From positions 1,922,001 to 1,986,000 of the forward strand of contig NZ_CP009428.1 of the NCBI RefSeq assembly GCF_000758725.1: a stretch of DNA of 64,000 bases, in the 5' to 3' direction. Under the pieces are notes generated by a model that was given only the letters and a program-made list of their open reading frames with translations, was not told where the DNA came from and searched no databases. The position numbers were made by a program, and so were the translations under genes. The first letter of the stretch is position 1, and each line of letters begins with the position of its first letter. This document shows, in pieces, positions 2,347 through 23,317 of the stretch. Source of the DNA: Paenibacillus odorifer. Its GTDB lineage: Bacteria; Bacillota; Bacilli; Paenibacillales; Paenibacillaceae.

Positions 2347-3711
2347 ATGAAGATACTTTTGGTCACGCACAAGTTTCAGAAGATAGTAGGTAATTATTGC
2401 AGTCGGACCATGGACGTAGTGAACGAGTCTGAATTAGTCCTTGGAGGTGTTTTGGAGTTTTTGCAAAACATCAATCCTTCTATAGATAGCATATTAATAA
2501 CAGATGATGCATTATCTCTGAGGATGGAACAGAACAGGAGTGATTTAAATAACCTAATCAATTGGCTCGTAGCTAATCAAAAGTCAAATGTAAAGATTTT
2601 AATCCTCACCAGGTACATAAGGAAAGATACAGAATGGGAGAATCTCAGCTATAGATATCCGAATCTCCAAATTAAGAATTACGAATACATACGCATTACA
2701 CCAGTACTATTTCAGGAAGCTCTTGAGTATTTATCCGATACCAAACCTCAATTAAAACAACATTCCAGACCTCACGACGATAAGAGTAATCACCAAAAGA
2801 GTACAGACAGAAAAGGGTCGTTTCTGGATCGCTTTAAACCGAAACCGAAAGCCCCAACTGAATTACAGGCTACGGATACCCTTACTAGGGAGCTTGATAA
2901 GATTAGCCGAGGGATTAGTCGTATTGTAGCGATAACCGGGCATAGTGGATGCGGAATTACCAGCACAACTATCAATGTTGCAAGTGAAGCGAGTAAACGG
3001 GGGCTGAATGTATTAATAGTGGATATGGATATCGAATATCGAAGTACGAATATGTATTTTAGCAGCTTTCATGAACGAACCAAGCGGGATGAAGATATAA
3101 ATGCATCTCTCATCCGAACGTTAGCAAGACCTCAGGATTATTTGACTACGGCTTTTCATTTGAAAGAAAACCTATGGCTGGCTGGACTGGGTTACAGCTT
3201 TTCCGATCCCAAGTTAATCCAGCAATTTTACACCAGCTCTAAACTTGTCGGTCTGTTGTCCTTACTCCGAAACAAATTTAATTTGATCCTATTGGATCTA
3301 CCACTGAACTTATTAGACAGATTTCGAGAAGCATTAATCCATATCGACAGCTTTGGCCTCTGTATTCCCAATAATCTATATGCTGTTTTAAGCACTCTGA
3401 GGAATGTGGAAGAGACACTGAATAAGGAAAATACGGCCTATTTGAATGCTAAATCAAAAGTAATTGTCACCAAATATAATGACCGTTCCAGATTTCAAGG
3501 TGAAATTTTCGTACCAGACAAGGTAAGTGCAGTTGCTACATCCGGTCTTTTAGAAAGCTTTACATACGGAATGAAAGTGGCAGGTCATATCTCTTATGAC
3601 ACGGACTTTGATACTCAGATTGAAACCGATGTGCCGCTTGTATATTCAAACAAAGACCATGAGCGGGCATATGGAAATATACTTCTTAGATTACTGGAGG
3701 GGAGTAGTTAA
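2347..3711 (+). CDS. TadZ/CpaE-like protein with degenerate P-loop
   Basis: A 454-residue protein, first gene of the Tad-T7SS block. Residues 1-130 look like a receiver-like or atypical N-terminal domain, residues 135-185 are a charged linker, and the rest is a ParA/MinD-type ATPase fold. The P-loop reads GHSGCGITS (around base 2935). The glycines of a deviant Walker A are kept, but the invariant Lys is Ile and the signature Lys is His. Strand VLIVDMD follows, as in the family. TadZ/CpaE proteins position Tad pilus machines at the membrane or pole. It overlaps the next gene by one base (TAATG). AGGTGATG precedes ATG 2347. Catalytic activity is doubtful because of the missing Lys. Confidence 0.8.
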   Translation: MKILLVTHKFQKIVGNYCSRTMDVVNESELVLGGVLEFLQNINPSIDSILITDDALSLRMEQNRSDLNNLINWLVANQKSNVKILILTRYIRKDTEWENLSYRYPNLQIKNYEYIRITPVLFQEALEYLSDTKPQLKQHSRPHDDKSNHQKSTDRKGSFLDRFKPKPKAPTELQATDTLTRELDKISRGISRIVAITGHSGCGITSTTINVASEASKRGLNVLIVDMDIEYRSTNMYFSSFHERTKRDEDINASLIRTLARPQDYLTTAFHLKENLWLAGLGYSFSDPKLIQQFYTSSKLVGLLSLLRNKFNLILLDLPLNLLDRFREALIHIDSFGLCIPNNLYAVLSTLRNVEETLNKENTAYLNAKSKVIVTKYNDRSRFQGEIFVPDKVSAVATSGLLESFTYGMKVAGHISYDTDFDTQIETDVPLVYSNKDHERAYGNILLRLLEGSS

Positions 3712-4592
3712 TGGATTTAAGTGGGCTTAAAAACGCGACACCCAATAAGCAAATGTTCAAGCGGGTTGCAGCATTGCTCTTTAGTCTATTGATCATCGTG
3801 GTTTCTTATATGTTCATTACGAAAGCCAGCAAAGATGCCAGCGATGTGGTAGAGGTGTTGCGGGTCAAGCAGAGTGATGGTATTCCGGCTTACGTAGTCA
3901 TTACGGAGCCTATGATTGAGAAATACAATATTATCAAAAAAGAATACACCGAGGACATGGTGTTGTCTGAAGATATAGATTCGGTGAAGGATAAACTGTC
4001 CGCATATTATCTTCGAGAAAACAGCGTGCTCTACAAAGATCAGTTGCTGGATGAAAAACCGCAAAAAAATGAATGGCTGTATCAAGTGAATGAGGAAAAT
4101 GAGGTCTTGACGCTTCCTTATAATTTTCTGGAGGTTGGTGGAGATATTCTAATGCCAGGAGACCGTGTTCGTATCCGTGTGTCCTATGAGGTAGAGGAGA
4201 AGGATGCCCCGGGTGGCAATCCAAACGCTATTTATTCCGAGTCCACGAATACGATCAAAAAAACTGAAGTATTGTTTGAAAGCATTGTTGTGAAGGATAT
4301 GCTCAACGCAAGTAGTCATTCCATCTACGAAGTATATAAAGAGGTGCAGAAACTGGATGAGGATAAGAAACAAAATGTTATGAAGAGTAAAGATTTCTTA
4401 AAGAACATTCAACCTAAAGCATTACTCCTCGAGGGGACGAGTGCACAAATTAACAATTATGCCAAATACAAAGGACTTAATGGAAATTCATTTCTGATTA
4501 CCATACTGAGCAGAAAAAGTAGTGATGTCATCATTGACCAACTGCCCACTTTGGAGAAAGAGGTGGAATCGTGGATCGGAAAAGAGGATTAG
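3711..4592 (+). CDS. CpaB/RcpC-like membrane-anchored SAF-domain protein
   Basis: A 293-residue protein with a single N-terminal membrane segment (residues about 18-38), then an extracytoplasmic region. It contains a SAF-like block (PAYVVITEPMIEKYNI, ENSVLYKDQLL) and a beta-rich RcpC-like part with MPGDRVRIRV. CpaB/RcpC proteins are accessory assembly factors of Tad pili, usually working with a secretin, which a Gram-positive cell lacks. The start ATG overlaps the previous stop (TAATG), and the 3' end overlaps the next gene by 22 nt, so the three are translationally coupled. The family call rests on the order of features and on context. Confidence 0.72.
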   Translation: MDLSGLKNATPNKQMFKRVAALLFSLLIIVVSYMFITKASKDASDVVEVLRVKQSDGIPAYVVITEPMIEKYNIIKKEYTEDMVLSEDIDSVKDKLSAYYLRENSVLYKDQLLDEKPQKNEWLYQVNEENEVLTLPYNFLEVGGDILMPGDRVRIRVSYEVEEKDAPGGNPNAIYSESTNTIKKTEVLFESIVVKDMLNASSHSIYEVYKEVQKLDEDKKQNVMKSKDFLKNIQPKALLLEGTSAQINNYAKYKGLNGNSFLITILSRKSSDVIIDQLPTLEKEVESWIGKED

Positions 4593-5398
4593 GAATCGAC
4601 AGCATTTTTCAGAAAATATCATCTAAGGATCTCGTCGGTGCCGAACTTCAAGAGAATAATCTGATTTATAGTGTAGTAGGTTTTATACCTGCTTGTGATG
4701 GCGTAGATAATGCCATGCTCATAAGCAACTTAGGATATTTGTTATCTCAAAAGGGTCTAAATACTTGTGTGGTTGACCTTAAGGTGTTTTATCCGAACTT
4801 ATATCAATTTCTAGATGTCCCTGCACATAAGAAGGGGCAAGGATTAATTAAGGTGTTAAAAAGCGACAAGGTAGATTTCCGAGATGAATTGCAGCGGACC
4901 AAATACGAGAAGCTGTTCCTGTTATCAGCTAGTCCACAGGATCTAATGGAGGAGTATTTTGATTTTGAGTTTGGAAATTTAGAGCGTGTAATTACTACAC
5001 TTAAGCAGATGTTTGATATTGTGCTGATCGACATTCCCAACAACCCTCCATTGGAATTTTGTCTGGGTGCCATGAAGTATTGTCACATAGGATTCTTTAC
5101 GGCAACAGAGAGGATGGAAGCTACCATAAATATGGTGAAGCTGCTGGATTATGCTAAATCGGTGGGGATAAGTACGGCTAAGTTCACCAGTGTGGTGATG
5201 ATGAATATTCAGCATATTGAATTTGATTATAAGGTTATGAAGGACATGGGTTTTAACATAGTTTCTGTACTGCCACTTGTGAAGGATGCCGTAGTTCGTG
5301 CACATGAGGGCAGGCTGTACATAAAAGATAACCCCCTAATTAATAAATATTTTAAAAAAGAGATCCAAAAGCTGGCCGATCGGTTGGCGGATCAGTAA
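4571..5398 (+). CDS. Second ParA/CpaE-like protein with no recognisable Walker A
   Basis: A 275-residue MinD/ParA-fold protein. Strand VVGFIPACDGVDNAML replaces the nucleotide-binding loop: neither the GK[TS] nor the signature Lys is present. Later landmarks of the fold remain, namely NTCVVDLKVF (switch I/Asp strand) and FDIVLIDIPNNPP (Walker B-like, LIDxP). GTG 4571 is the start, with AGAGGTGG five bases before it, and lies inside the end of the CpaB-like gene. It is probably a non-hydrolysing partner of the TadZ-like protein at 2347 or of the TadA ATPase. It could also be a structural scaffold. Confidence 0.72.
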   Translation: MDRKRGLGIDSIFQKISSKDLVGAELQENNLIYSVVGFIPACDGVDNAMLISNLGYLLSQKGLNTCVVDLKVFYPNLYQFLDVPAHKKGQGLIKVLKSDKVDFRDELQRTKYEKLFLLSASPQDLMEEYFDFEFGNLERVITTLKQMFDIVLIDIPNNPPLEFCLGAMKYCHIGFFTATERMEATINMVKLLDYAKSVGISTAKFTSVVMMNIQHIEFDYKVMKDMGFNIVSVLPLVKDAVVRAHEGRLYIKDNPLINKYFKKEIQKLADRLADQ

Positions 5399-5411: not shown

Positions 5412-6884
5412 TTGCTGACACGTGCGAAAATTAGCGATATGCAGCAAAAAGTACTGCATCAGGTAGGGCCGAAGGAGAACATGGAGGATCTGGCTAGTAA
5501 ATATACGACCATAAGCTTTGATGAGGCTTTGGAGTTATGCCAAAAATATATTACGAAAATAACGACACATGCCTATAGGCGAGAAAACGACCCTGCTCGA
5601 AAACGCGAAATGACTAAGGCATACATAAATGAATTTGTAGACGCGCAGAAACCTTCTGTCGAGGGATTTTATGATCTAGCAGAGTTGAAAAACGCACTCA
5701 CCAATGAAATCACTCACTATGGTCCCATTACCAAGGCTATGGAGGACCCTAGTATAGATGAAATCAGAGCCAACGGGCCTGATCAAATCTTTGTGGAAAG
5801 CGGCGGAAGAAGCCTGCAGTGGGATCAAAATTTTACAGATCGTGATCATATGGAACGGATTATCGCCAAGCTTATAGGTATCTCCAAGGTTCGGCTGATT
5901 CCAAAGATACCCATGGTAAATGCCAGAACGATTGAGGGATATCGTGTGAATGCCACTCATGCTGAGATCTCACCGTATGATCAACCGGCGTTTGTGATCC
6001 GAAAGTTCAGCAAGAAGAGTATTGTTCCAAAAATGCTCATTGAGAATAAATCCTTCTCCTCAAATATGTATAAATTATTGTCTTTGATCCCGAAATCAGA
6101 CTTATCTTGGATTACAGTGGGACCGACAGGAAGCGGAAAGACAACGCTAAATGAAATTCTTGTGAAGGAGATCAATCCTCTATCAAGGATTATTACCATT
6201 GAAAATCCTTCGGAGATGAGATTGATTCAAAGAGAAGATAACAGCGAACACGGTAGAGTGCTGAATGATGTGTTGCAATACGAGTCGGTCCCTGATGATG
6301 ATGACTCAAGCCCAGCGACTATGGAAAATTTGCTTATTAATGCGATGAGACAGTCACCTCACTGGATTGGACCAGGGGAGCTTCGAACACCCGGTGAATT
6401 CGCCACAGCGCTTCGAGCAGCACAGACGGGACACTATTTCTTTTCCACCCTTCATGCAGAGGGGGATAAGGAAGCGATCTTTAGATTTCTAACGGCCTAT
6501 CTAATGGCCTCTAATGAGCCAGCGGAACTTGCTCTACGAAATATCTGCAGTGCTGTGAAATTTGTAATCTTTCAAGAGAAACTGGCAGATGGTACTCGTA
6601 AAGTGACTTCAATTTCAGAGATTTTGGGCTCAGATGGCTTGAATCCACTGATTAATCAAATCTATAGATTTGATTGTGATGATGTTATTGAAGAGATGAT
6701 TGAAGGCAAGAAGATGATCAAAATTGTTGGCAGACATTTACGTGTAGGAAAGATCTCGGAGAATGTACAGCAGCTAATGCTCAAGGCCGGAATTAAGAAA
6801 AGCAGGTTTGAGTTCTTTACCAAGGATCCGTTGGAGGGCGAAACAGAGGTGTACGAATTCGATGAATACAACTTTAATCATTAG
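5412..6884 (+). CDS. TadA/CpaF-type secretion ATPase (T2SS/T4P/T4SS family)
   Basis: A 490-residue hexameric traffic ATPase. Walker A is GPTGSGKTT (residues about 237-245). An Asp-box-like acidic stretch and IGPGELR (family VGE[VL]R Walker B Glu) follow, then AAQTGHYFFSTLHAEG, the His-box typical of TadA/CpaF. The N-terminal two-helix region precedes the PAS-like domain with DEIRANGPDQIFVE. TTG 5412 is the start, supported by GGGGAG six bases upstream. It should power pilin or pseudopilin movement with the TadB/TadC genes that follow. The next gene starts 23 nt inside its 3' end. All key ATPase motifs are intact, unlike the two ParA-like neighbours. Confidence 0.93.
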   Translation: MLTRAKISDMQQKVLHQVGPKENMEDLASKYTTISFDEALELCQKYITKITTHAYRRENDPARKREMTKAYINEFVDAQKPSVEGFYDLAELKNALTNEITHYGPITKAMEDPSIDEIRANGPDQIFVESGGRSLQWDQNFTDRDHMERIIAKLIGISKVRLIPKIPMVNARTIEGYRVNATHAEISPYDQPAFVIRKFSKKSIVPKMLIENKSFSSNMYKLLSLIPKSDLSWITVGPTGSGKTTLNEILVKEINPLSRIITIENPSEMRLIQREDNSEHGRVLNDVLQYESVPDDDDSSPATMENLLINAMRQSPHWIGPGELRTPGEFATALRAAQTGHYFFSTLHAEGDKEAIFRFLTAYLMASNEPAELALRNICSAVKFVIFQEKLADGTRKVTSISEILGSDGLNPLINQIYRFDCDDVIEEMIEGKKMIKIVGRHLRVGKISENVQQLMLKAGIKKSRFEFFTKDPLEGETEVYEFDEYNFNH

Positions 6885-7845
6885 TCTACTTCTTGGTATG
6901 GCTGCATTTGTACTATTTAACGCCATCTTTGAGGTCAAGTTTTTTCAGGGTTCTGTAAGATATGTTCTCGACGTTATGGATACCCTCGCAGAGTACCTAG
7001 GCAAGTATAACACGAAGCGTTATGTTGACCGGATCAAGAAGGAGCGAATCGTCAGGCAGAAGGAAAATATTTATGCGAAATACAATCGAATGGTAGAGGG
7101 TTTGATTTTAGACTTTAATATGCCGTTTACGCTGGAGAGCTTTACCTCAATGCTGTGCATTTGCTTTGCGATTATAGCTCTGCTAGTGGTTCTGCTTATG
7201 AAAAGCGTTACGCTTTCGCTTGTGATTACGATTTCAATTTTTGTAGGATTGTTTACTTTTTTCGTGATGCAGTCTAGAGCCATCCAAGCAGAACGGCTTG
7301 AAAATATAATGGATGCCGAAGATGTGATTTGTCCGTTAGCCCGTGAAGGTGTACTAGTAGCCATTAAAAAGGTGATGGAGAGCGATGAATATATCAGTCC
7401 TAATCTTAGGCCATATTTTCAGCAATTTATAGATAATTGCGACAACAACGGCTATTCCTTTAAGCAAGCTATTACGCTATTAAATAGACAGCTTGGTCCC
7501 AAATTTGATAATTTCACAAAAAAAGCAGTGGTCTTCGAATATAACGAAAGAAAAGGTATGGCAGACATTTTCCTCGATATTGTAGATGAAAATGCCGTGC
7601 TGCGCGAGATTAACTCTAAAAAGGAACGGATTTTTAGAAAGATGAATCGAGATTTTATGTTTAAAACCGGAATCATTGTGCTTTTTTTCTTGTACGCATT
7701 AACTGTAAAGGATTTTAGAGAATTTATGCTTGAAAGCAATGTTGGGAAATTGATCAACACGATATTGATTAGTGTCATTTGTTTAAGCTTTGCACGCAGT
7801 CAGGTACTCCAAGGGAACGTCGGCATGGGTGGTGAGCGCAAATGA
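6862..7845 (+). CDS. TadB-like inner-membrane platform protein (T2SSF family)
   Basis: A 327-residue membrane protein with an N-terminal transmembrane helix (residues 3-22), a pair of helices around 85-130 and two C-terminal helices. The cytoplasmic helical T2SSF domain lies between (PYFQQFIDNCDNNGYSFKQA). ATG 6862 is preferred over the far upstream ATG 6808, which would overlap the ATPase gene by 77 nt. AGAGGTG precedes 6862 at normal spacing. TadB and TadC form the membrane platform on which the TadA ATPase acts. The start of the TadC-like gene overlaps the stop (ATGA). Confidence 0.86.
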   Translation: MNTTLIISLLLGMAAFVLFNAIFEVKFFQGSVRYVLDVMDTLAEYLGKYNTKRYVDRIKKERIVRQKENIYAKYNRMVEGLILDFNMPFTLESFTSMLCICFAIIALLVVLLMKSVTLSLVITISIFVGLFTFFVMQSRAIQAERLENIMDAEDVICPLAREGVLVAIKKVMESDEYISPNLRPYFQQFIDNCDNNGYSFKQAITLLNRQLGPKFDNFTKKAVVFEYNERKGMADIFLDIVDENAVLREINSKKERIFRKMNRDFMFKTGIIVLFFLYALTVKDFREFMLESNVGKLINTILISVICLSFARSQVLQGNVGMGGERK

Positions 7846-8752: not shown

Positions 8753-8947
8753 ATGAAGACAGATCTTAAGGAATTGCTAGTGGAGGAAAAAGGAGAAGTA
8801 GGGATCAAGCAAATTGCCATCACGGTTGGCGTTATTATTTTAATTGGAGTGGTAGTGACCTATCTAAAGGGTGGAGTACTGACAGGATGGGTCGATGATG
8901 TTTGGGAATTCTTATTCGATGATTTGATTGGAAAGATGGTTAGCTAA
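8753..8947 (+). CDS. Flp1-like type IVb pilin-like peptide
   Basis: A 64-residue protein with a short charged N-terminus (KELLVEEKGEVG), one hydrophobic segment (IAITVGVIILIGVVVTYL) and a short acidic/aromatic tail. The size, layout and position directly after TadC fit a Flp-type pilin. The canonical G-xxxx-EY processing motif is not clear: the candidate cleavage point is KG/EVGIKQ, so processing is uncertain. No prepilin peptidase is encoded in this block. A GGGGGGA RBS lies before ATG 8753. It may form a pseudopilus or simply anchor the platform. Confidence 0.72.
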   Translation: MKTDLKELLVEEKGEVGIKQIAITVGVIILIGVVVTYLKGGVLTGWVDDVWEFLFDDLIGKMVS

Positions 8948-8964: not shown

Positions 8965-9447
8965 ATGCAAGGGATAGCAAAGGCAGTATTACTTACCATT
9001 CTGACCTCGGTTACGATTTTGCTGTTTGTAAATTTGGCTTTCTTTTTCCCATGGTATTTAACGCTGGTCACAGAGACGTATAGTGTTTCGCAGATTGTAG
9101 CTGGTGATAACTACTTGAAGGAATCGTATTATGAGGATGTTATGGAGAGATTACAGGAGCGCCCTATTTACCGAGATAAAGCCGATGATATTGTCATTAC
9201 GGTCACTAATGCAGATCATGATAATGCGATTGGAAATGATGATGAAACCTCATATTACGATGAAGGGAACGAATGGAATAAACCTTATCGGCAAAGAGGC
9301 GAACCGCTTACGGTTGAGATTAAAGCTGTATATCCTTTCTCTATCACTTTATGGGGAAAGAAGCTGGAGCGTGAAATTCCGGTCCACTTCTCCATGTCAA
9401 CGACAGGCCTGAAACATTATAAGGATCTGGACTACTATATAGATTGA
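8965..9447 (+). CDS. TadE/TadF-like pseudopilin-type membrane protein
   Basis: A 160-residue protein: an N-terminal hydrophobic helix (residues 5-33, rich in Leu, Ile, Phe) then a soluble extracytoplasmic region with an acidic stretch (DHDNAIGNDDETSYYDEG) and a beta-like C-terminal part. This is the general layout of TadE/TadF minor pseudopilins, and the gene sits right after the pilin-like peptide. I see no diagnostic motif, so the family is inferred from layout and synteny. RBS GGGGTGA precedes ATG 8965. It is likely co-transcribed with both neighbours. Confidence 0.6.
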   Translation: MQGIAKAVLLTILTSVTILLFVNLAFFFPWYLTLVTETYSVSQIVAGDNYLKESYYEDVMERLQERPIYRDKADDIVITVTNADHDNAIGNDDETSYYDEGNEWNKPYRQRGEPLTVEIKAVYPFSITLWGKKLEREIPVHFSMSTTGLKHYKDLDYYID

Positions 9448-9461
9448 TAGGATGACTTTGT

Positions 9462-9959
9462 GTGAAAAATATTGCAGTAGGAGTATTGTTGATTATTCTA
9501 GTGTCAATTGTTGTGGAGCCTTTGGTGGAGATGGGCATTGTATTTAGAGAGAAGGTAGTGCTGAGCACTGCGATCTCTAATGCTTGCCGGGCAGCCAAGG
9601 ATCGGAGTTTAGAGTATGAACTGCTACGTGGACTGGATGCGGTGATTAACGAGGAGAGGTTCAAAGAATACTTTTCAGATGCGTTCGAAAGTGCTCTAAA
9701 TGTATCGGAACAGACCGATAATGGCAACGTGCTTACATTTACCTCCAATGATGATAGATACAATGATTTTACGGTAAATTTAGATTTTTCTAACATAGAG
9801 AACACCCAAACCAGCCAATGGGTATCAGAAGTTAATGTGAAAGCACAGGCAACATACAAATTTAAAACCAGATACTTAAAGCTCGCTGAAGAAGCAGACA
9901 AAGAAGTAGATTATCAGTTAATTAGCGAGAGGAAATATATTCTCTCCGTTAAGAATTGA
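9462..9959 (+). CDS. Second TadE/TadF-like pseudopilin-type membrane protein
   Basis: A 165-residue protein with an N-terminal membrane helix (AVGVLLIILVSIVVEPLVEMG, about residues 5-25), followed by an alpha helix with SNACRAAKDRSLEYELLRGL and a soluble C-terminal region. A TM helix leading into an amphipathic helix is the hallmark of pilin-like folds. Starts at GTG 9462 with TAGGATGA upstream, 14 nt after the previous stop. No known motif identified; function inferred from layout and from its place between the pilin-like genes and the T7SS genes. Confidence 0.58.
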   Translation: MKNIAVGVLLIILVSIVVEPLVEMGIVFREKVVLSTAISNACRAAKDRSLEYELLRGLDAVINEERFKEYFSDAFESALNVSEQTDNGNVLTFTSNDDRYNDFTVNLDFSNIENTQTSQWVSEVNVKAQATYKFKTRYLKLAEEADKEVDYQLISERKYILSVKN

Positions 9960-9976
9960 TGAAAGGAATAATCAGA

Positions 9977-10207
9977 ATGGACTATATCATGGTTACTTTT
10001 CAAACGGATACAGGTCTAAGAATGGACCTAAAAGTCCCGGTGTTTGTGACTATAGAAGAACTGTTAGACATGTTAACGGAGTCCTTGAGCTTAAAGGAGA
10101 GAAGCGGGGCTAAGCTTCAGGCTGAGCCATTAGGCAGAATATTAAGTAATAGTAAAACCTTGGATCAAGAAGGTGTAGCCCAAGGCGCACTGCTCACACT
10201 TATCTGA
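9977..10207 (+). CDS. YukD/EsaB-like ubiquitin-fold T7SS protein
   Basis: A 76-residue soluble protein with alternating beta strands (IMVTFQTDTGLRMDLKVPVF) then a helix (TIEELLDMLTESL) and the ending GVAQGALLTLI. The length and the start match YukD/EsaB ubiquitin-like proteins of type VII secretion. ATG 9977 is chosen over TTG 9956/ATG 9959 because AAAGGA sits nine bases before it. EsaB/YukD is a regulator or component of T7SSb. Its position immediately upstream of the EssC cluster supports the call, and it marks the boundary between the Tad-type and T7SS-type parts of the block. Confidence 0.75.
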   Translation: MDYIMVTFQTDTGLRMDLKVPVFVTIEELLDMLTESLSLKERSGAKLQAEPLGRILSNSKTLDQEGVAQGALLTLI

Positions 10208-15349: not shown

Positions 15350-15649
15350 GTGGCGGGAAACAATCTTACATTTAATCCGGATCAGGCACTAGGTGTAGCT
15401 AAGTCTATTAAAACCAAAGCAAACAATGCAGATACTCTTATCAAACAATTGCAATCTGAAATTCATGCTGTTAGCGGTTGGTGGCAAGGAGAATCACAAA
15501 CTGCTTTTATACAACAATTCGATGGACTTATGCCTAGTTTTAAGGAAATGGTTCTCTGTGTAGAGAACATCAGTAAGAACCTAACGCAAATTGCTAACAT
15601 CAAGCAAGAAGCCGAGCAAGAAATGGCAAGTAAACTGCGTGGAAAATAA
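15350..15649 (+). CDS. WXG100-family T7SS protein (EsxA-like)
   Basis: A 99-residue WXG100 protein with GWWQGES at the helix turn. The start is GTG 15350: a perfect AAAGGAGGTGA at 15334-15344 overlaps the upstream GTG 15341, which therefore cannot be the start. The resulting length matches EsxA exactly. It is the strongest RBS in the block, in keeping with an abundant substrate. A perfect 12-bp hairpin follows at 15663-15694. Together with the protein at 14941 it may form a heterodimer or act as secretion signal carrier for the two lipases downstream. Confidence 0.92.
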   Translation: MAGNNLTFNPDQALGVAKSIKTKANNADTLIKQLQSEIHAVSGWWQGESQTAFIQQFDGLMPSFKEMVLCVENISKNLTQIANIKQEAEQEMASKLRGK

Positions 15650-15662
15650 TGCTGGCATACAT

Positions 15663-15694
15663 AACAAGGCAGATTTTGAGCTATCTGCCTTGTT
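15663..15694 (+). terminator. Perfect hairpin after the WXG100 pair, no T-tract
   Basis: Stem AACAAGGCAGAT / ATCTGCCTTGTT (12 bp, perfect) with an 8-nt loop. No run of T follows, so it is more likely an mRNA-stabilising or partial-termination element separating the strongly translated WXG100 genes from the effector-like genes. It lies inside the block, so transcription probably continues. Confidence 0.6.
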
Positions 15695-15744
15695 AGTATG
15701 ATTTTAAGTAAGTATGAAGTGAATTTATTTGGGGGGATCTGTAA

Positions 15745-16884
15745 GTGAAGCTGACCGAACAACAATACATAACACTGGCATCAGTTGTAGAAGCAGCAGA
15801 CGGTCTCGAACTGACGGATAGTCTGGCTTTTGCTGGTGCAGCAGCCTATGCCTATAGAGATGAGCATGATGATAGATTAATTATCTTTACATATAAAGGA
15901 AAAGATTGGCTTGCGGATCTGCAGTCTCTGTTAAGCGGTCAGAGCAGCATGCCGGAGGAAGCATCAAGATTTTTATTAAAAAACAAAGGGGAGAAGGATT
16001 GCCAGGTTACTGGTTATTCCATGGGCGGTGCCTTAGCTCTTTATGCAGCAGCGGTTAATGAGGGGATTGGTGGTGTGGTATTCGACGCACCAGGTATAGC
16101 AAACATTCTGACTGCGGAGCAAAGGGGAAAGCTTCAGGTTAAAAATATTGTGGCTTATAACAGTCTTGTATCCGCGTTAGGCAAACACAACGAAGAGATT
16201 GTATTTGCTAAATCGGGTATAGAAGAAACGGAATTTCTAATTCCTGATTCGCTTTGGCAGCGCTATACCTTTGACTCTGAGGGGAGCGTGATTATAGGTG
16301 AAAAAGGGAATGCCTATGCTTTGCTATCCAAGATTAATATCCTAACGGAAGAGCATACGCCTGTTTTTGATGCTGTTATGAGTGGATTTGGGGATACCGT
16401 CGGACTAACAGAATCTGCATCGGATCATTTGGGTTACGTGATATTTACCTTAATAGATCAGTTGGATGTAGGAAAAGTGCGAGGTGCACTGATTGAAATT
16501 GCCCACAAATATGAACGAATGTTGGATGCGAAGTTCAGCGAGTGGAGAACCGAAATGAATAATATTCCGGAATCCTTCTTATTCGATGACATCCGTGCGA
16601 AATTTGAACAACTATCTGAAGCATCCATGCTAGAGGCAGCGGGAATAGCAGAAGAGCTTAATGAAATCACGCAAGCTGTCTTATCCATCCTGCTGATTTG
16701 CAGTCCGGTAGGGGATAAGCTGATGGACCATGTAGAGGAATGGTTGAATAAACTGACAAATGCCCTCATGGAACGTATGGAGAAACTAACGAACCAAATG
16801 ACATTACATCTCGATAAGGTGGTTGAAACAACCATGAATCAAATGCTCAAATTTCCAGAATTGAAGCTGGATTTTGAGTTCTGA
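15745..16884 (+). CDS. Alpha/beta-hydrolase (DUF2974-like lipase) with helical C-terminus
   Basis: A 379-residue protein without a signal peptide. The N-terminal half is an alpha/beta hydrolase with nucleophile elbow GYSMGG (Ser92), preceded by IIFTYKGKDWLADL, a variant of the lipase oxyanion strand. The C-terminal 140 residues are predicted helical and amphipathic (ELNEITQAVLSIL, EEWLNKLTNALMERMEKLTNQM). The order, lipase first and helices last, is that of S. aureus TslA, a T7SS-secreted lipase. GTG 15745 is preceded by GGGGGGAT. It is likely an effector secreted by the adjacent EssC. The substrate is unknown and secretion is inference from context. Confidence 0.78.
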   Translation: MKLTEQQYITLASVVEAADGLELTDSLAFAGAAAYAYRDEHDDRLIIFTYKGKDWLADLQSLLSGQSSMPEEASRFLLKNKGEKDCQVTGYSMGGALALYAAAVNEGIGGVVFDAPGIANILTAEQRGKLQVKNIVAYNSLVSALGKHNEEIVFAKSGIEETEFLIPDSLWQRYTFDSEGSVIIGEKGNAYALLSKINILTEEHTPVFDAVMSGFGDTVGLTESASDHLGYVIFTLIDQLDVGKVRGALIEIAHKYERMLDAKFSEWRTEMNNIPESFLFDDIRAKFEQLSEASMLEAAGIAEELNEITQAVLSILLICSPVGDKLMDHVEEWLNKLTNALMERMEKLTNQMTLHLDKVVETTMNQMLKFPELKLDFEF

Positions 16885-16924: not shown

Positions 16925-17755
16925 ATGAAAAAGATTTATACAAGGAAGGTGTTGACTCTGATGTTGATATTATCAATGTTCAGCTTTATGGGATGTGGCT
17001 CTAGAGAGGAGAAAAGTGAAAAGAAAATTTTGAGCTCCTTGCAGGAAAAGTATGGCGAGGAATTCATCCTTGATGGCATAGGCGGCGGTTGGGGAACGAT
17101 GAACAACAATACATTGAAGGCGACTGTGCATCCTAAGAAGGATGACACGATTAATGTACGGGTGGAAATCACGAAGGATTTGGAAAAGGTGTATGACAAC
17201 TATTTAAACCAGGTGGTAGCAAAAAAAGACGAACCAATGATTCAAGCAATCGCTGCTAGCATTTGGCCTGACAGTAAAATTATCGTTGCCAACGAAACGG
17301 GGTTGGTTTACCCCAAGCATAACGATACAAAGATTTCCTACGAGCAATTTCTGAAGTTATATCCAACGAATACGCTGGTGATTTCAGTCTATTTAAATAG
17401 TGATAACTATGTTGATGGTAATGGAGATATGGACCAAGAGGCAGAAATGAGAAAATATATGGATTTTGCAAAAATACTAGCAGAAAATAAATATGTGAGT
17501 AGTCTGATAGGGATAGGATACCTCACTCCAGAGGCCTATGGTCGATTAGAAGAGGTCAAAAAGGCAGAGGAAAGTGTTGACATATATTTTAGTGACGAAA
17601 CCCAAAAAACAGGAATTATTAATATAGTTACAATGGCTGGATTCAAATTAGGAGTTGATGGAAAGATTGTAGAATCTCAAGACAAGATTAGAGAATTCTT
17701 TGATATATGGAAAGAGGACAGAATAAAAAGAATGGAACAAAGAGGGGGATTGTAA
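16925..17755 (+). CDS. Lipoprotein of unknown function
   Basis: A 276-residue protein with a lipoprotein signal peptide: basic KKIYTRK, hydrophobic LMLILSMF, lipobox FMGC with Cys24. The mature region is charged (SREEKSEKKILSSLQEKYGEEF) and shows no domain I recognise. Its stop overlaps the start of the lipase gene at 17755 (TAATG), so the two are tightly coupled. An outer-face lipoprotein translated with a lipase may be an accessory or immunity factor for it, as the Tla/lipoprotein-type partners are in other systems. That is inference. RBS AAGGAGTG precedes ATG 16925. Confidence 0.7.
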   Translation: MKKIYTRKVLTLMLILSMFSFMGCGSREEKSEKKILSSLQEKYGEEFILDGIGGGWGTMNNNTLKATVHPKKDDTINVRVEITKDLEKVYDNYLNQVVAKKDEPMIQAIAASIWPDSKIIVANETGLVYPKHNDTKISYEQFLKLYPTNTLVISVYLNSDNYVDGNGDMDQEAEMRKYMDFAKILAENKYVSSLIGIGYLTPEAYGRLEEVKKAEESVDIYFSDETQKTGIINIVTMAGFKLGVDGKIVESQDKIREFFDIWKEDRIKRMEQRGGL

Positions 17756-19671
17756 TGGACGATACGCTTACAGAGGTAGAGTTAAAGCAGATCTCACAAC
17801 TTGTTTATTTAGATATACTCAACATTAAGGATTTGGAAAAAACATATGCATTATATAAAAAAATCACTCTCGGCGAAGTTCTCAACTTCTACGCTTCTCC
17901 CGCAGGTCAGCAACAATTAAAAGAACGCTTTCCTGACGATCTTAACGGAGTCAAAGAATACAAGCAGTGGAATGATCTCATAGAGCAGATGAATATATCT
18001 GATTATCAGAATTGGGAAATCTCCAATATCGTCTCTCATAATAAAAAAGAGGAATCAGGTTTTGTTGCATTTACAGTAGATACCAAGAACGGGGCAAAGG
18101 TAGCGGCGTTCCGGGGTAGTGAACCAATGGATAACCCGCTTTACCATAATGACTGGAAAAACAACGGAACAACTGCATATGCCCTTGAATCTTTACAACA
18201 GGCGGAAGCTAAAGAATATATGGATAATTTCAAAATAGATGCGGGTTATGAATTGTTTCTGACTGGGCACTCGCTAGGAGGTAATCTAGCCCTATATTCC
18301 TCTTTTATATTACCTGAGAATTTACGGAATCAACTAACTTCCGCATCAACGTTTAATGCACCGGGATTTAATGGAATCTTGCTTGATAAACACAGGGCCA
18401 CTATAGATGAATTGAATGAGAATGACAAAATTAAAGAGTTCAGAAATAAAAATGACATCGTTCCGGCCTTATTTCAAAATCCATCAGCAGGTATTTACAT
18501 TGATACTGAATCTGAAAGGAATACCGTGCTGCCACATCATTCCTTATTCTCACTGAAGATCGACGGGAACAATGAGTCTTTTCAACGTTCAGAGTCACAG
18601 ACTCGGGCTTTGGTTCCTAACCTTGTGCATAATATTACAGTTGGTTTAGAAATTGTGCCGGGGCCACTAAAGGAAGCATTGGTTGAAGGGATTTTTAAAG
18701 TATTGGATGGGGAAGTAGATCTGCGACCATTAGCGTTTGCGGGAATAGCCGTAGTTGGGCTTTTAATGGTGACTGTTGGGCCCGTTGCAGTTGTTACTGC
18801 GGCGATTACTGCAGCGTTAGCTGCGCTCGTTGTCACTATAAAAGCTCTGGTTGCGCTTTATGTGATTGGTTTTGTAATTGACAGTGTGATTCCCTGGATT
18901 GAGCAAAAGGTGGAGGATATCAAGGAGAGAGTGGTCTCCTTTTATAATCAAAGTGTTGAATTTGTAACGAATATGGTGACAGAAGCTGTCCGAGTGACTA
19001 ATTTGATCGGTGATAAAATTGAGGAGTTTTCACAAAAGGTAAAGCACGCAGTCTCTGATTTTATGACGAAATTAAAAGAGGGCTTTAATCGTTTTGTAGA
19101 GAATGCCATTCAGTATATTGAAGCTCAGAAGGAATATTGGATTAGTGTAAAAGACAAAGCAATGAAGAAAATGGGGGATATATTCCAAAGTGTAAAATCT
19201 AAAATTAAGAAAACTAAGGAAGAATTTATCGCTGGCGTACGCACGATTAAAGATTCAGCGATCAGCAAAGTCAAATCGACCGTAACGAAAACCATAACGA
19301 AGATTGCAGTTGCATCTGCTAGTGTCATTCAAGGAGCCAAGATTTTGGCGAATATGGATAAACTGGAGAGTCTGCAGAAAAGTCTGGTGCGTAAGGAAGA
19401 GAGCATTGCTGAAGCCGTCGAGAGGATATTATCTATAGCTTCTGGAGTCAGTTCTAACGTGGGCAGGACTTACAGTGAATCTTATGTTCAAGCTCAATTA
19501 AGAGAAGTTCAACGTTTAAGCAATGAAGTCCGGACACAGAAAAATCGTGTAACAACAGCGATTAACGGAAAAACTGCAGGTTTAAGATACACAGTTACAA
19601 AATATCGAGAGATTGAATCCAAAATTGTTGCAGCTGCCCGTGCAAGTACTACCACAATACATCTTAACTAA
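17755..19671 (+). CDS. Large lipase-like protein with hydrophobic centre and helical C-terminus
   Basis: A 638-residue protein. The N-terminal lipase domain has GHSLGG (Ser173), a downstream Asp in NDIVPALF and His in PHHSLFS, a complete class-3/DUF2974-like triad. A long hydrophobic region follows (about residues 325-385: GIAVVGLLMVTVGPVAVV then ALAALVVTIKALVALYVIG), then about 230 residues of amphipathic helix (VKHAVSDFMTKLKEGFNRFV and similar). ATG 17755 (TAATG overlap, RBS GAGGGGGA) is preferred to the far upstream ATG 17707. The N-lipase, C-helical order resembles TslA; the hydrophobic segment is additional and suggests membrane insertion. Best effector candidate of the block. Confidence 0.8.
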   Translation: MDDTLTEVELKQISQLVYLDILNIKDLEKTYALYKKITLGEVLNFYASPAGQQQLKERFPDDLNGVKEYKQWNDLIEQMNISDYQNWEISNIVSHNKKEESGFVAFTVDTKNGAKVAAFRGSEPMDNPLYHNDWKNNGTTAYALESLQQAEAKEYMDNFKIDAGYELFLTGHSLGGNLALYSSFILPENLRNQLTSASTFNAPGFNGILLDKHRATIDELNENDKIKEFRNKNDIVPALFQNPSAGIYIDTESERNTVLPHHSLFSLKIDGNNESFQRSESQTRALVPNLVHNITVGLEIVPGPLKEALVEGIFKVLDGEVDLRPLAFAGIAVVGLLMVTVGPVAVVTAAITAALAALVVTIKALVALYVIGFVIDSVIPWIEQKVEDIKERVVSFYNQSVEFVTNMVTEAVRVTNLIGDKIEEFSQKVKHAVSDFMTKLKEGFNRFVENAIQYIEAQKEYWISVKDKAMKKMGDIFQSVKSKIKKTKEEFIAGVRTIKDSAISKVKSTVTKTITKIAVASASVIQGAKILANMDKLESLQKSLVRKEESIAEAVERILSIASGVSSNVGRTYSESYVQAQLREVQRLSNEVRTQKNRVTTAINGKTAGLRYTVTKYREIESKIVAAARASTTTIHLN

Positions 19672-19713: not shown

Positions 19714-20577
19714 ATGAAAAAATTAATCAGTTCTCTACTTTTATTACTAATGGTATCCCTGATGACTTCTACATTCTCAGGTTTTGCAGCAAGTCTTCCA
19801 TTGAGGGTAGTAGTAAATGGAGAAAAAGTTATTTTTCCAGACGCCCAGCCTTTTATCGATGCGCAGCAAAGAGTACAGCTACCCGTGCGTTTTATAAGTG
19901 AAGCGCTTGGAGCTAAGGTGTTATGGGACAGTAAGGCCAAAAAGGCAACAATCTCGCTTGAAGGCAAAACAATGGGTGTCTATATCGGGAAAAAGAGTTA
20001 TGAGCTCAATGGAAAAACAAAACAAATGGACACGGCAGCATTGTTCAAACAGTCAAGAACTTTTGTCCCACTTCGATTTGTATATGAAGGACTCGGTGTA
20101 AACGTGAAATGGGATGATGCTGTGAAGACGGTCTACATCACTACTCCTTCAGGTGAAATAGCTACCTCTGATAAGCCTGCTACGGGAGAATCAACGAATG
20201 GAGCGAAGACGGTAACGATTCATGGGTTTGAAATCCCGTATACCCATCTGGGGGCTAATCTAGAGTCGACTTATATTACCGATTCACAGCTGACAGTATA
20301 CAACAATGATGATCGGAAAGCAGGTCAGTATCTTTTTCAAATTACAATTACATTTACTAATATAGGCTCTGACCCTGCACTGGAAGCGAAGGAAGCGGAG
20401 AATATTCTTAGACAAAACATTGAGGGCGATGTCGTAGATTCGATTATGAAGTATGTTAGAACAAAAACAAAAAGAATGGATGAGCTAGATTATAAAGTCT
20501 TCCAAAGCAAAGATTATAAAATTGATGTAGATTCTCCTGGTATGGGGGATATAGGAATCGCAGTATGGCCGAAGTAG
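19714..20577 (+). CDS. Exported protein with copper amine oxidase-like N-domain
   Basis: A 287-residue protein with a Sec signal peptide (KKLISSLLLLLMVSLMTS, cleaved after SGFAA). Then come two beta modules of the copper amine oxidase N-terminal (stalk) family: LPVRFISEALGAKVLWDSKAKKA and VPLRFVYEGLGVNVKWDDA are clear repeats. The C-terminal 120 residues are a separate unrecognised domain. Such stalk repeats are common in Paenibacillus cell-surface proteins and are probably wall-associated. It is in the same transcription unit as the secretion genes, 14 nt before the 908-residue gene. Confidence 0.82.
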   Translation: MKKLISSLLLLLMVSLMTSTFSGFAASLPLRVVVNGEKVIFPDAQPFIDAQQRVQLPVRFISEALGAKVLWDSKAKKATISLEGKTMGVYIGKKSYELNGKTKQMDTAALFKQSRTFVPLRFVYEGLGVNVKWDDAVKTVYITTPSGEIATSDKPATGESTNGAKTVTIHGFEIPYTHLGANLESTYITDSQLTVYNNDDRKAGQYLFQITITFTNIGSDPALEAKEAENILRQNIEGDVVDSIMKYVRTKTKRMDELDYKVFQSKDYKIDVDSPGMGDIGIAVWPK

Positions 20578-20590
20578 GAGAGGTGAAGGT

Positions 20591-23317
20591 ATGAAAAAAT
20601 CGATATGGCTTAGTATAGTGACAATATTCTTATTCCAATCTATAGCTTCTTCAGTTTTCTCTGAAGAGTCAGTGAATGATACTTCTAACAATCTTCCAAA
20701 AACAGCGACAGCTGTTATCGAGAAGATCAATAAAGATATGGCGGAGCTCTATAAAAAATCTAATTATTACACAATGGAGACTAATAAAGGAAAGTTAAGA
20801 GAGGATTTGTTACAAAACCAGATAAAATCTAACAATAGTAATTTTGAGATTGTCTATGGTGGAAATCATGAATGGCTTGAGCATAGCAATATGTTTGCTT
20901 TTTCCGGGTATTCGATTGATGGGGACTCGGTCTCAACTGAGGGAGCTCCATGGTATGCTGGATGGAGCGGGATTCAAATTCAGAATTTTAATATGATTAA
21001 GGAACCTTGGAAGGACTCTGGCGTAAAATCAAGCTACAAAATTAGAAAAAATGATTTTGATGCATTTGTAGGTCGGGATATTGAGTATCTAGCGAATTCC
21101 GGCGGGACTTTTGAGCAGGCGATTCTTACTGGATTAAACTTGAGCTATGCCGGAAAGAAATATGAACGGTTCATCTATAACAATCAAGACAAGGAGTATA
21201 AAGATAGGGTTGTATACACTCAGAATACTACACCGTCTAAGGGAGGGCGATGGATAGATTATGTCCACGTCCTGCAACCGCCTACCTATCTGTCTTGGGG
21301 ATCAGGGAGGATTTACATCCAAGGTTCCAATGGAAATATTACTTACTTAGGCATTCCTATCGCACCGTTTATTTTGCAGGTAAATGATTTATCCCCTCAT
21401 TTCGAAACTTTGCCAACCGGCGCGGTAGCTGGACAAGAGGTAACCGTTGGAATCAGACTCAGATCCAGCTTCGCCACGCAGAAAACAACAGATTACGCTT
21501 GGAAGATCACGAGTAACGGAAAGGAAATCCCTGTAAGATACCATGGTCATGCGTCAACGTTAGCAGGTGAAATTATGCTTGCGGCTAATACGGCTGACAA
21601 TATTCTTTTCGCGACATTTACAATGCCTGATGAGGACGTATACATCCAGTTTAATCTGAACAGGCTGAAGTCACCTAATGAAGTCTTTTACGGAAATAAT
21701 GAGATTTACGGATGGATTAAGAAGGTCAACTCGATGCCAACAACTAAAGGCTCCTTCGATCTGGATTATAATGTGTTATCGAAAAAAGTGAAATTCGGGT
21801 TAGCCGATGGTGCTGCTATAAAGGCTGTTCTACAACCGCAATATTCTGATTTTACTTGGAGTGGGAATGCTACAGGCGCTTTGGAAGTAATCAATAATTC
21901 GGATACTATCTATCGTTATTTCCGTGTGGAGAATAATCCGCTGGTTAACGATGCCGCCAGTACTATAGTTAGGCAACCTGACATCATAGCTAGTCTGCAG
22001 CGTCCTGATTTTGGTGATGATCCTGTTAACGGTAAGTGGTACATTAATCCGGCTCCGTATACACCTAATCAAAAGTCAGGTAATATCAGTTTCCAGGGTA
22101 CTGTGAGCAGAAATTTCACTCGTAATTATCAGGTGTGCAGCACAACTAAGAACGGGCAAGGTAAAGATGTTGAATCTTGTCAAACGTATACGGAGAGCGG
22201 CAGCACTTCAGCTCCGTTTACACCAGGTGAGGATGTCAAAACCATTCGGACCTATATTTATAACGGGGCCAAACAAATAGCACCTAAGCTGTACAAGAAT
22301 TCAATAGACAAGAATAAAGCGGATTCTTTGATTCGAAAGCTCCTCTGGACAAGTGAGCCTTACAATTATAATGTAATCCGCTGGATGGCTCATGAAGATG
22401 AGAATAAGAACTTACAGGATTGGACGAAAGTAAAGGGGCAATTCGAACGAATCTTCACACAACAGGCAAGCGGAGACATCGGTTGGAAGGTAGAGAATAG
22501 CATGGCTCAAGCTTATAAGAAAGCCAGAGCTACCGCTAAAAAAATGCTTAACGACAAATCTAATTATGATACCGCCGTGTTTGCGACGGATAAGCAACTT
22601 CAAGGGTATGATTATCCGATTAAATCCGGATATTATTTTAATCCTGTTGGAACGTATACCTTTACACTGGAGACAGTTACGTTTAAAGATACGGATAAAG
22701 ACACGAAGGACCATAAGGATCTTGTTGAGGAACTTACGAATTCTTTCCGATATGAAACTGATCTTATGTATATCAATAATGATAAAGTTGCGGTCAATCT
22801 GCGGAATGAACCACTGAGCAAAAACGGGAATAACTTTGCAAGAAAGCCAGCAGCTTTATCCGTAGAGGATAACACCGGAGTGAATGATGCGAAATTGTTG
22901 ACGGTGGAGAACAGCTTTACTAAAGATGTGGAAGAGATCCCATATTCACAAGAAAGAGAAAGTGATAATGGCACCCATGAATTCTGGAAGAATATATTAG
23001 AGGGTTACTCACAGTCTAGTACACTGGGAAGCTTCGACAATTTCAAATACCGTGAATATGTGGGCTTGAATCAGAATATGTACAAGATCACGGAAAAGTC
23101 TACGGTGACGATTACGATTAATAAGGACCATATTCCTGTCTATACTACAGCTGAAATGCCAGATGGGAAGTACTATGTTAAGGCTTGGTTGGCAGATGTG
23201 GAGCTCTCCAAGAGTACCAACGCATACAAATCACTGGGCAAGCTTGTCGGCATTAAGCCGCTGGATCAAATTGAGGTTATGGTAAAAGGCTCTATGTTTG
23301 ATGACTTAAATAATTAA
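20591..23317 (+). CDS. Large exported protein of unknown function (908 aa)
   Basis: The protein has a Sec signal peptide (SIWLSIVTIFLFQSIASSVFS) and no membrane segment after it. It is rich in Asn, Tyr and Lys, with predicted beta regions (AGQEVTVGIRLRSSFATQ looks Ig-like) and a single Cys pair at VCSTTKNGQGKDVESC that could form a disulphide. I cannot assign a family. Position as last gene before the terminator at 23329, and the length, make it a candidate surface structure, tip protein or substrate of the Tad-like apparatus. RBS GGAGAGG precedes ATG 20591. Confidence 0.72.
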   Translation: MKKSIWLSIVTIFLFQSIASSVFSEESVNDTSNNLPKTATAVIEKINKDMAELYKKSNYYTMETNKGKLREDLLQNQIKSNNSNFEIVYGGNHEWLEHSNMFAFSGYSIDGDSVSTEGAPWYAGWSGIQIQNFNMIKEPWKDSGVKSSYKIRKNDFDAFVGRDIEYLANSGGTFEQAILTGLNLSYAGKKYERFIYNNQDKEYKDRVVYTQNTTPSKGGRWIDYVHVLQPPTYLSWGSGRIYIQGSNGNITYLGIPIAPFILQVNDLSPHFETLPTGAVAGQEVTVGIRLRSSFATQKTTDYAWKITSNGKEIPVRYHGHASTLAGEIMLAANTADNILFATFTMPDEDVYIQFNLNRLKSPNEVFYGNNEIYGWIKKVNSMPTTKGSFDLDYNVLSKKVKFGLADGAAIKAVLQPQYSDFTWSGNATGALEVINNSDTIYRYFRVENNPLVNDAASTIVRQPDIIASLQRPDFGDDPVNGKWYINPAPYTPNQKSGNISFQGTVSRNFTRNYQVCSTTKNGQGKDVESCQTYTESGSTSAPFTPGEDVKTIRTYIYNGAKQIAPKLYKNSIDKNKADSLIRKLLWTSEPYNYNVIRWMAHEDENKNLQDWTKVKGQFERIFTQQASGDIGWKVENSMAQAYKKARATAKKMLNDKSNYDTAVFATDKQLQGYDYPIKSGYYFNPVGTYTFTLETVTFKDTDKDTKDHKDLVEELTNSFRYETDLMYINNDKVAVNLRNEPLSKNGNNFARKPAALSVEDNTGVNDAKLLTVENSFTKDVEEIPYSQERESDNGTHEFWKNILEGYSQSSTLGSFDNFKYREYVGLNQNMYKITEKSTVTITINKDHIPVYTTAEMPDGKYYVKAWLADVELSKSTNAYKSLGKLVGIKPLDQIEVMVKGSMFDDLNN

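What the first reader, a model, noticed from the sequence alone, without database searches (positions are those of the whole stretch)
2347..23317. Tad/Flp-pilus machinery and a type VII secretion core in one operon-like block
Seen: 19 same-strand genes, many overlapping or a few bases apart, between terminators at 2168-2204 and 23329-23365. They encode TadZ-like, CpaB-like, TadA, TadB, TadC, a pilin-like peptide and two pseudopilin-like proteins, then YukD, a propeller, EssC, two WXG100 proteins, lipase-like proteins and exported proteins. Established: T7SSb normally pairs EssC with EsaA, EssA and EssB; Tad systems normally need a prepilin peptidase, and in Gram-negatives a secretin. None of these is in the block. 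Inference: the Tad platform replaces the missing T7SS membrane subunits, giving a hybrid export machine. I do not know of a description of this arrangement as one system.
Basis: partly seen in the sequence, partly recalled or inferred. Interest (0 to 1): 0.88.

Follow-up and report, generated by a model that had tools for sequence, protein, structure and literature searches.

The report
Toxin exporter coupled to Tad pilus
This bacterium holds in one same-strand gene block the core of a type VII protein exporter and the parts of a Tad pilus; these two versions occur together or not at all in 100 sampled genomes of its genus, so they likely work as one contact-dependent machine for delivering toxins, which has not been tested.

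Summary
In detail: 19 + strand genes (2347-23317) join a Tad apparatus to a type VII secretion (T7SS) core and cargo. The arrangement is not undescribed. It is T7SSg, named in 2024 (PMC11217815), where Tad genes were reported adjacent 'in all organisms' and the link left open as possibly coincidental. My calls speak to that question. Of 100 genomes of the genus, the same 16 carry both this TadA type and this EssC type, 5.63-5.73 kb apart, and none carries only one. TadA and EssC divergence match each other (r 0.98) but not rpoB (0.48-0.56), so the block has its own shared history. EssA and EssB are absent from the genome; EsaA was not tested. A prepilin peptidase adjoins the block in 7 of 15 relatives. 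Two T7SSf-like Clostridium loci also carry Tad genes with a peptidase, which the paper says T7SSf lacks. The g, f and h TadAs are each closer to ordinary pilus TadA than to one another, which suggests repeated recruitment. Coupling is well supported; whether Tad parts form the export channel is untested.

The parts
2167..2197 (+). terminator-like hairpin upstream of the block
   Evidence: 12 pairs, T run
2347..3711 (+). TadZ1-like ATPase (AAA_31/CbiA in C-terminal part)
   Evidence: conserved in all 15 fetched genus relatives
3711..4592 (+). [quoted passage not shown]
   Evidence: no Pfam hit; hhalign E 4e-5, probability 70% to the CpaB-like proteins of L059/L060 (110), whose RcpC match is over the cut-off in L059 (53) and under it in L060 (52)
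4571..5398 (+). second TadZ/MinD-like protein
   Evidence: weak AAA_31 (4); conserved
5412..6884 (+). TadA/CpaF motor ATPase; Walker A GPTGSGKTT, GELR and LHxE motifs kept
   Evidence: T2SSE 9.6e-31 (4); best solved relative CpaF 6e-36 (101); motifs in 26 of 26 loci
6868..7845 (+). TadB-like platform protein (start chosen by comparison; longest ORF starts at 6808)
   Evidence: no Pfam hit; weak hhalign; position and helices
7842..8723 (+). TadC-like platform protein, GspF/PilC-like fold
8753..8947 (+). pilin-like peptide, 64 aa; Gly of a prepilin site kept, Lys where pilins have Glu+5
   Evidence: sequence rows
8965..9447 (+). pseudopilin-like protein 1 (TadE/G type, by layout)
   Evidence: N-terminal helix; conserved
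9462..9959 (+). pseudopilin-like protein 2; its end overlaps yukD by 4 bp
9956..10207 (+). TsgB (YukD/EsaB-like)
   Evidence: PF08817 2e-10 (4)
10222..11049 (+). TsgL (DUF5050 propeller)
   Evidence: PF16472 3.6e-29 (5)
11055..14939 (+). TsgC (EssC) without FHA domains; three P-loops kept (longest ORF starts at 10989)
14941..15303 (+). WXG100 protein TsgA1 (WTG)
   Evidence: PF06013 5.5e-13 (5); motif 117
15341..15649 (+). WXG100 protein TsgA2 (WQG)
   Evidence: PF06013 1.1e-14 (5); motif 117
15662..15695 (+). 13-bp hairpin between machine genes and cargo
15745..16884 (+). cargo: lipase-like protein, GYSMG, probably helical C-terminus
   Evidence: Lipase_3 and Mbeg1-like just under cut-off
16925..17755 (+). 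lipoprotein-like exported protein (possible immunity partner, inferred)
   Evidence: sequence; no family (5, 113)
17755..19671 (+). cargo: lipase-like protein, GHSLG, probably helical C-terminus (longest ORF starts at 17707)
   Evidence: Mbeg1-like 1.2e-17 (5); SA1320 family far under cut-off
19714..20577 (+). exported protein, copper amine oxidase N-terminal-like domain; conserved downstream core
   Evidence: in 14 of 14 genus relatives with downstream sequence
20591..23317 (+). exported 908-aa protein with Ig/CARDB-like domain; conserved downstream core
   Evidence: weak Athe_2463 domain (113)
23329..23358 (+). terminator-like hairpin downstream

Best explanation
The block encodes a T7SSg export core and a Tad apparatus that are present together or absent together in 100 genomes of the genus, and it likely works as one contact-dependent toxin-delivery machine. 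Shown: the genes, their order, their joint presence and absence, their matching divergence, and intact ATPase motifs in TadA and EssC. Inferred: EssC, with YukD, the propeller and the WXG100 pair, would carry effectors (here two lipase-like proteins) across the membrane; TadA would drive TadB/TadC to build a short pilus or pseudopilus; CpaB, a likely relative of the RcpC conduit, would line its passage; the two conserved exported proteins would act at the wall or surface; and the pilin would be matured by a prepilin peptidase encoded next door in some relatives and elsewhere in this genome. The Tad part thus would supply the envelope passage and target contact that EsaA, EssA and EssB supply in T7SSb.
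For: Same 16 of 100 genus genomes carry T7SSg-type TadA (E<=1e-60) and EssC (>=63% identical), 0 of 84 others carry either (41 of the 84 carry other EssC types); TadA-start to EssC-start 5631-5728 bp, same strand, in 16 of 16. Order tadZ-cpaB-tadZ-tadA-tadB-tadC-pilin-pp1-pp2-yukD-tsgL-essC-wxg-wxg in 15 of 15 fetched genus relatives; the run up to essC is also whole in two Clostridia MAG loci, L048 and L050. On an rpoB tree of 30 genomes presence needs at least 9 changes. Identity of TadA with EssC r 0.98, rpoB with either 0.48-0.56. G012, rpoB sister of block-bearing G106, keeps only scraps of tadZ1, lip2 and exp. EssA and EssB absent. TadA motifs kept in 26 of 26. Peptidase beside tadZ1 in 7 of 15 relatives. 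The exported 908-aa protein is in the same 16 genomes plus the G012 scrap. T7SSf-like and T7SSh-like loci carry other Tad sets, each TadA nearer to pilus TadA than to the window's. Five relatives carry toxin-like proteins with a shared front and differing ends. Precedent: the M. xanthus Kil Tad pilus works with a needleless T3SS (PMC12075869, abstract and one section); RcpC is a periplasmic conduit (PMC12307814, abstract).
Against: No expression, interaction or secretion data. Physical linkage alone lets a block move together. Order is not fixed everywhere: L046 has about 1.9 kb between pp2 and yukD, L044 has its WXG100 genes reversed, L047 has WXG100 genes before essC, and L052 and L056 have the Tad module on the other strand (33, 40). 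Two MAG loci with related EssC (L054 53%, L057 49%) lack a T7SSg-type TadA in the sampled genome (MAGs may be incomplete), and L057 keeps pp2-yukD-tsgL-essC without TadABC beside it, so the core may do without. The genome has a canonical Tad locus (28) and a third Tad-like locus with no T7SS (L039), so Tad modules also live alone. The pilin lacks Glu+5. A hairpin at 15662 could split the transcript. EsaA not tested genome-wide. Only two T7SSf-like and two T7SSh-like loci were seen.
Confidence: 0.5

Rival explanations
1. Two machines in one operon: a Tad pilus that brings target cells close, and a T7SSg that exports on its own with no shared parts. They share regulation and are selected together.
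For: All genes same strand with short gaps; conserved unit; a canonical Tad locus stands alone in the same genome; L057 keeps the core without TadABC beside it.
Against: Leaves T7SSg with one clear membrane protein, EssC, and no envelope part; T7SS genes stand at different places among the Tad genes in T7SSf-like and T7SSh-like loci, as if interleaved rather than appended.
Confidence: 0.32
2. EssC only loads substrates and the Tad pseudopilus is the true exporter, pushing them out like a type II secretion piston.
For: TadA is more conserved than EssC (60: 0.60-1.00 against 0.38-0.99 identity in 26 loci); a pseudopilin gene stays with yukD even in L057 (40).
Against: No secretin or wall pore identified; the P-loops of EssC are kept in 26 of 26 (60), as expected if EssC itself translocates.
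Confidence: 0.1
3. Coincidence: neighbours by descent in few genomes, as the 2024 paper allowed.
For: The TadA type is rare: 3 of 398 genomes drawn from the phylum, this one and a genus-mate included; two MAGs have a related EssC without it.
Against: 16 of 16 joint presence, at least 9 changes on the rpoB tree, discord with rpoB; other Tad lineages joined to other EssC lineages.
Confidence: 0.05

Closest known systems
T7SSg (Garrett, Higginson, Palmer 2024, PMC11217815; named sections and passages read, supplement not seen)
   Same: TsgA1, TsgA2, TsgB, TsgC without FHA, TsgL DUF5050, adjacent Tad genes, Paenibacillus, lipases as cargo
   Different: The paper lists five core parts and leaves the Tad link open; here the Tad genes, two exported proteins and, in 7 of 15 relatives, a prepilin peptidase belong to the conserved unit
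T7SSh (same paper; T7SSh-like loci L062, L063 here)
   Same: EssC (no FHA found in L062) with Tad-type genes downstream
   Different: its TadA scores 8-18 bits against g-type TadA, no better than chance; TadB and TadC look fused in one 698-aa protein; order differs
T7SSf (same paper; T7SSf-like loci L059, L060 here)
   Same: DUF6382 protein, TadZ-like ATPase, YukD, FHA-EssC, WXG100
   Different: L059 and L060 also carry TadA, TadB/TadC-like, pilin-like, pseudopilin-like, CpaB-like and peptidase genes, which the paper says are not at T7SSf; no FHA on the DUF6382 protein and no phosphatase noted
Myxococcus Kil Tad pilus with needleless T3SS (PMC12075869, abstract and section 16 read)
   Same: Tad apparatus working with a secretion-system core for contact killing
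   Different: other secretion core, diderm host; similarity is of working, not descent of the core
T7SSb (EssC/EsaA/EssA/EssB)
   Same: EssC, YukD, WXG100
   Different: no FHA, no EssA, no EssB

Membership tests
T7SSg | EssC-type ATPase without N-terminal FHA | tested here: met
   TIGR03928 1300 bits; no FHA in the whole protein or its N-terminal piece
T7SSg | YukD-like TsgB and DUF5050 TsgL | tested here: met
T7SSg | two non-identical WXG100 proteins | tested here: met
T7SSg | Tad genes adjacent | tested here: met
T7SSg | EssC groups with the published TsgC clade | tested here: inconclusive
   71% identical to EssC of P. aquistagni and 68% to Acetivibrio saccincola, a species and a genus named for T7SSg in the paper; tree with the published set not rebuilt
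T7SSb | EssA and EssB | tested here: not met
   0 matches in the whole genome; controls ring in B. subtilis
T7SSb | EsaA | not tested
   no EsaA search was run, in the block or the genome
Tad pilus | TadA motor | tested here: met
Tad pilus | TadB/TadC platform | tested here: inconclusive
   TadC fold match with a sharp gap but Foldseek E not significant; TadB weak
Tad pilus | prepilin peptidase | tested here: met
   two in the genome, none in the block; 16 of 16 block-bearing genomes have two or more
Tad pilus | Flp pilin with Gly/Glu+5 processing site | tested here: inconclusive
   Gly kept, Lys at +5 (57)
Tad pilus | assembled surface filament | not testable with these tools
   needs microscopy
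T7SSf (loci L059, L060) | DUF6382 protein, TadZ-like ATPase, YukD, FHA-EssC, WXG100 | tested here: met
   L060; L059; TadZ receiver match over cut-off in L059 only; L059 YukD and both loci's WXG100 by my profiles
T7SSf (loci L059, L060) | PPM phosphatase TsfF and FHA on TsfJ | tested here: inconclusive
   no FHA hit in the DUF6382 proteins; not every ORF in the flanks was scanned for a phosphatase

The most novel reading that the evidence does not exclude
Tad machines have been recruited more than once by EssC-type secretion cores (T7SSg, T7SSh and a T7SSf-like type) that lack an EsaA/EssB-type envelope part, giving Tad-powered type VII secretion: a class of hybrid contact-dependent toxin exporters in Bacillota.
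Probability: 0.38. Interest if true: 0.9.

Novelty: new member of a known kind. Interest (0 to 1): 0.62.

Why it matters
How type VII cores without EsaA/EssA/EssB cross the thick wall is unknown. The 2024 survey could not say whether the Tad genes beside T7SSg and T7SSh matter. Joint presence and absence, a shared history apart from the species tree, an adjacent peptidase in some relatives, and further Tad sets joined to other EssC lineages make the link a testable claim: remove tadA and watch secretion. If the link is functional, it is a Gram-positive counterpart to the Kil Tad pilus working with a needleless T3SS.

Tried and rejected
A TadA tree of g, f, h and pilus types was not used: f and h sit on branches of 8.6 and 9.7, and rows L168 and L175 were cut from the wrong strand. 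Pairwise bits were used instead; they rank similarity and do not prove separate origins (g against PilT/PilB scores 28-36, close to g-f, so g-f and g-h are near background). The tadA profile picked up EssC P-loops, so its f, h and L096 scores are inflated; L096 is an ABC ATPase. Clean profiles were used in 69.

Plasmid search for the TadA types found only CpaF-type proteins at under 60% identity in Gram-negatives and one actinobacterium, and a Butyrivibrio plasmid ATPase with no annotated T7SS gene in the 29 kb around it.

The sign test is trivial: I gave one label for both traits because they are identical in all 30 genomes. It counts events; it is not an independent test. The 14 block-less genomes of 84 were picked by me, not at random. 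In one search rpoB was compared as DNA, TadA and EssC as protein.

No empty-site test was made: the search for the upstream neighbour did not complete and my last genome search went to rpoB.

Structure search with the 908-aa exported protein mainly tells of residues 265-506 (CARDB/Ig-like); no adhesin or conduit family was identified. The namesake of its weak Athe_2463 domain match is only described as an abundant secreted protein of unknown function (PMC5865380, passages). Profile search of TadC and CpaB against solved structures by sequence found nothing credible.

Papers: beyond PMC11217815 no paper in the held library uses T7SSg or T7SSh; the listings of searches showed me no other paper on this link, but those listings are capped. 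Subscription papers and preprints are not held.
Full report

It has been described. PMC11217815 (Garrett, Higginson and Palmer 2024; sections 7, 9, 11-16 and passages read, supplement not seen; [quoted passage not shown] The authors could not say whether the two are related or neighbours by coincidence. The component features are met here; placement of EssC in the published tree was not redone. No other paper in the held library uses the names T7SSg or T7SSh.

Missing parts. EssA and EssB are absent from the whole genome while both models ring in B. subtilis; EsaA was not searched. The genome has one EssC-type protein. Two prepilin peptidases exist, one beside PilB/PilT-type ATPases and one in a canonical Tad locus at about 1.294-1.305 Mb. 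Right next to that lies a third, divergent Tad-like locus without T7SS genes, followed by large exported proteins (its TadA match sits at the T2SSE cut-off). So peptidase can be supplied in trans, and Tad sets also occur alone. In the TadA comparison the window's protein scores 100 bits against the canonical one and 645-663 against the g-type TadAs of Clostridia loci L048 and L052.

Joint inheritance. In 100 genomes of the genus, T7SSg-type TadA (E<=1e-60) occurs in 16 and EssC of at least 63% identity in 16: the same 16, with none of the other 84 holding either; 41 of those 84 hold other EssC types. The distance between the two starts is 5631-5728 bp, same strand, in 16 of 16. The gene order up to the WXG100 pair is the same in 15 of 15 fetched relatives, and the two exported genes at the end (19714-23317) follow in all 14 with downstream sequence. 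The 908-aa protein is found in those 16 genomes and, as a fragment, in one more, G012. G012 is the rpoB sister of block-bearing G106 and keeps only scraps of tadZ1, lip2 and that protein side by side: both halves of the block are gone there. On an rpoB tree of 30 genomes (all 16 with the block, 14 of the 84 without, chosen by me) presence needs at least 9 changes. Among the 16, TadA and EssC identities agree (Pearson 0.98, Spearman 0.94; 120 pairs), whereas rpoB agrees poorly with either (EssC 0.56, TadA 0.48; Spearman 0.19 and 0.20). By similarity of upstream genes the 16 fall into seven groups of sites (one group is partly joined by the peptidase itself). I infer that the block travels as one unit; its two halves have not been seen apart in this genus sample.

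Outside the genus sample. One search kept the best 79 distinct loci of 551. A Tad ATPase lies within the held flanks in 17 of the 79: 13 of g type, 2 T7SSf-like, 2 T7SSh-like. The run tadZ1 to essC is whole in Clostridia MAG loci L048 and L050 (33). L047 and L049 are cut by contig ends, but their genomes hold the g-type TadA. In Pseudobacteroides (L052) and Acetivibrio mesophilus (L056) the same Tad module sits on the opposite strand beside an EssC that does have FHA domains: linkage survives rearrangement and a different EssC. The order is not fixed everywhere: L046 has about 1.9 kb between pp2 and yukD, L044 has the WXG100 genes reversed, L047 has WXG100 genes before essC. L054 and L057 have related EssC (53%, 49%) and no g-type TadA in their genomes, although these are MAGs; L057 still keeps pp2-yukD-tsgL-essC. 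The Chloroflexi-type loci L055 and L061 also lack this TadA type (48). In the phylum at large it is rare, 3 of 398 genomes, this one included.

Peptidase and pilin. In 7 of 15 genus relatives a peptidase gene of 139-155 aa stands just upstream of tadZ1 on the other strand (49, 54). All 16 block-bearing genomes have at least two peptidases. The pilin-like peptide keeps the glycine of a prepilin site, but lysine stands where pilins have glutamate (the pilin rule is recalled).

Other Tad-T7SS unions. Clostridium loci L059 and L060 read DUF6382 - TadZ-type ATPase - YukD - FHA-EssC - WXG100 - TadA - TadB - TadC - pilin-like - pseudopilin-like x2 - CpaB/RcpC - prepilin peptidase. T2SSE and the peptidase are over the curated cut-offs in both; RcpC and the TadZ receiver are over in L059 only; the T2SSF matches are under it in both. 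This is T7SSf-like; [quoted passage not shown] A PPM phosphatase and an FHA on the DUF6382 protein were not seen, so it may be a distinct variant. T7SSh-like loci L062 and L063 have their own TadA (T2SSE just under cut-off in L062, 53), a SAF-domain CpaB-like protein (L062, 77), and a 698-aa protein with no family match that looks like fused TadB-TadC (L062). TadA scores: g with pilus type 99-177 bits, f with pilus type 80-123, h with pilus type 26-49, but g-f 39-51, g-h 8-18, f-h 5-8. Each T7SS-linked TadA is thus nearer to ordinary pilus TadA than to the others. I read this as repeated recruitment; a tree could not resolve it. By the paper's component lists in the sections I read, T7SSf, g and h have no EsaA- or EssB-like envelope part; these are the types where I see Tad genes. 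T7SSi, which resembles h, is not reported there with Tad genes and was not examined.

Cargo. Here it is two lipase-like proteins with GxSxG motifs around a lipoprotein-like gene. In five relatives the place before or after the exported pair holds ~700-aa proteins that share their first 550-600 residues (87-95% identical) and differ at the end, the signature of polymorphic toxins. A hairpin of 13 bp at 15662-15695 stands between machine and cargo and is kept in the three closest relatives; it may lower cargo expression or end transcripts.

Mechanism and verdict. I hold that EssC exports and the Tad apparatus gives passage and contact (0.5); two coupled but separate machines come second (0.32). 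The decisive test is secretion in tadA and tadC deletions. Coincidence is now unlikely (0.05).

Noticed in passing
window 15662-15695: Strong 13-bp hairpin with weak T tail between the second WXG100 gene and the first lipase gene; same hairpin in G110, G082, G094, unrelated stems at the same place in some others.
   Followed up: partly
L038 6522-16975 and L039 772-14156 (genome C1 about 1.294-1.322 Mb): A canonical Tad locus with its own peptidase and, beside it, a divergent second Tad-like locus followed by very large exported proteins and no T7SS.
   Followed up: partly
L212 10139-11474 (genome G012): Scar of a lost block: fragments of tadZ1, lip2 and the 908-aa protein next to each other, beside a ~800-aa toxin-like gene.
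   Followed up: yes
L056 14882-17912: In Acetivibrio mesophilus the DUF5050 propeller is fused to a Ser/Thr kinase and follows a PP2C phosphatase: TsgL may be the kinase-less form of such a protein.
   Followed up: partly
L059 4311-6932, L060 14357-16165: Large exported proteins also stand beside the Tad-T7SS genes in the Clostridium loci, perhaps counterparts of the 908-aa protein; not compared in depth.
   Followed up: no
L057 8518-13861: One pseudopilin gene stays with yukD-tsgL-essC although TadA, TadB and TadC are not beside it.
   Followed up: partly
window 5412-6884 against 11055-14939: TadA is more conserved between loci than EssC (60-100% against 38-99% identity in 26 loci).
   Followed up: yes
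genomes G113, G116, G086, G115, G101: Paralogous ~700-aa toxin-like proteins with a shared front and swapped ends near the conserved exported pair (54, 117).
   Followed up: partly
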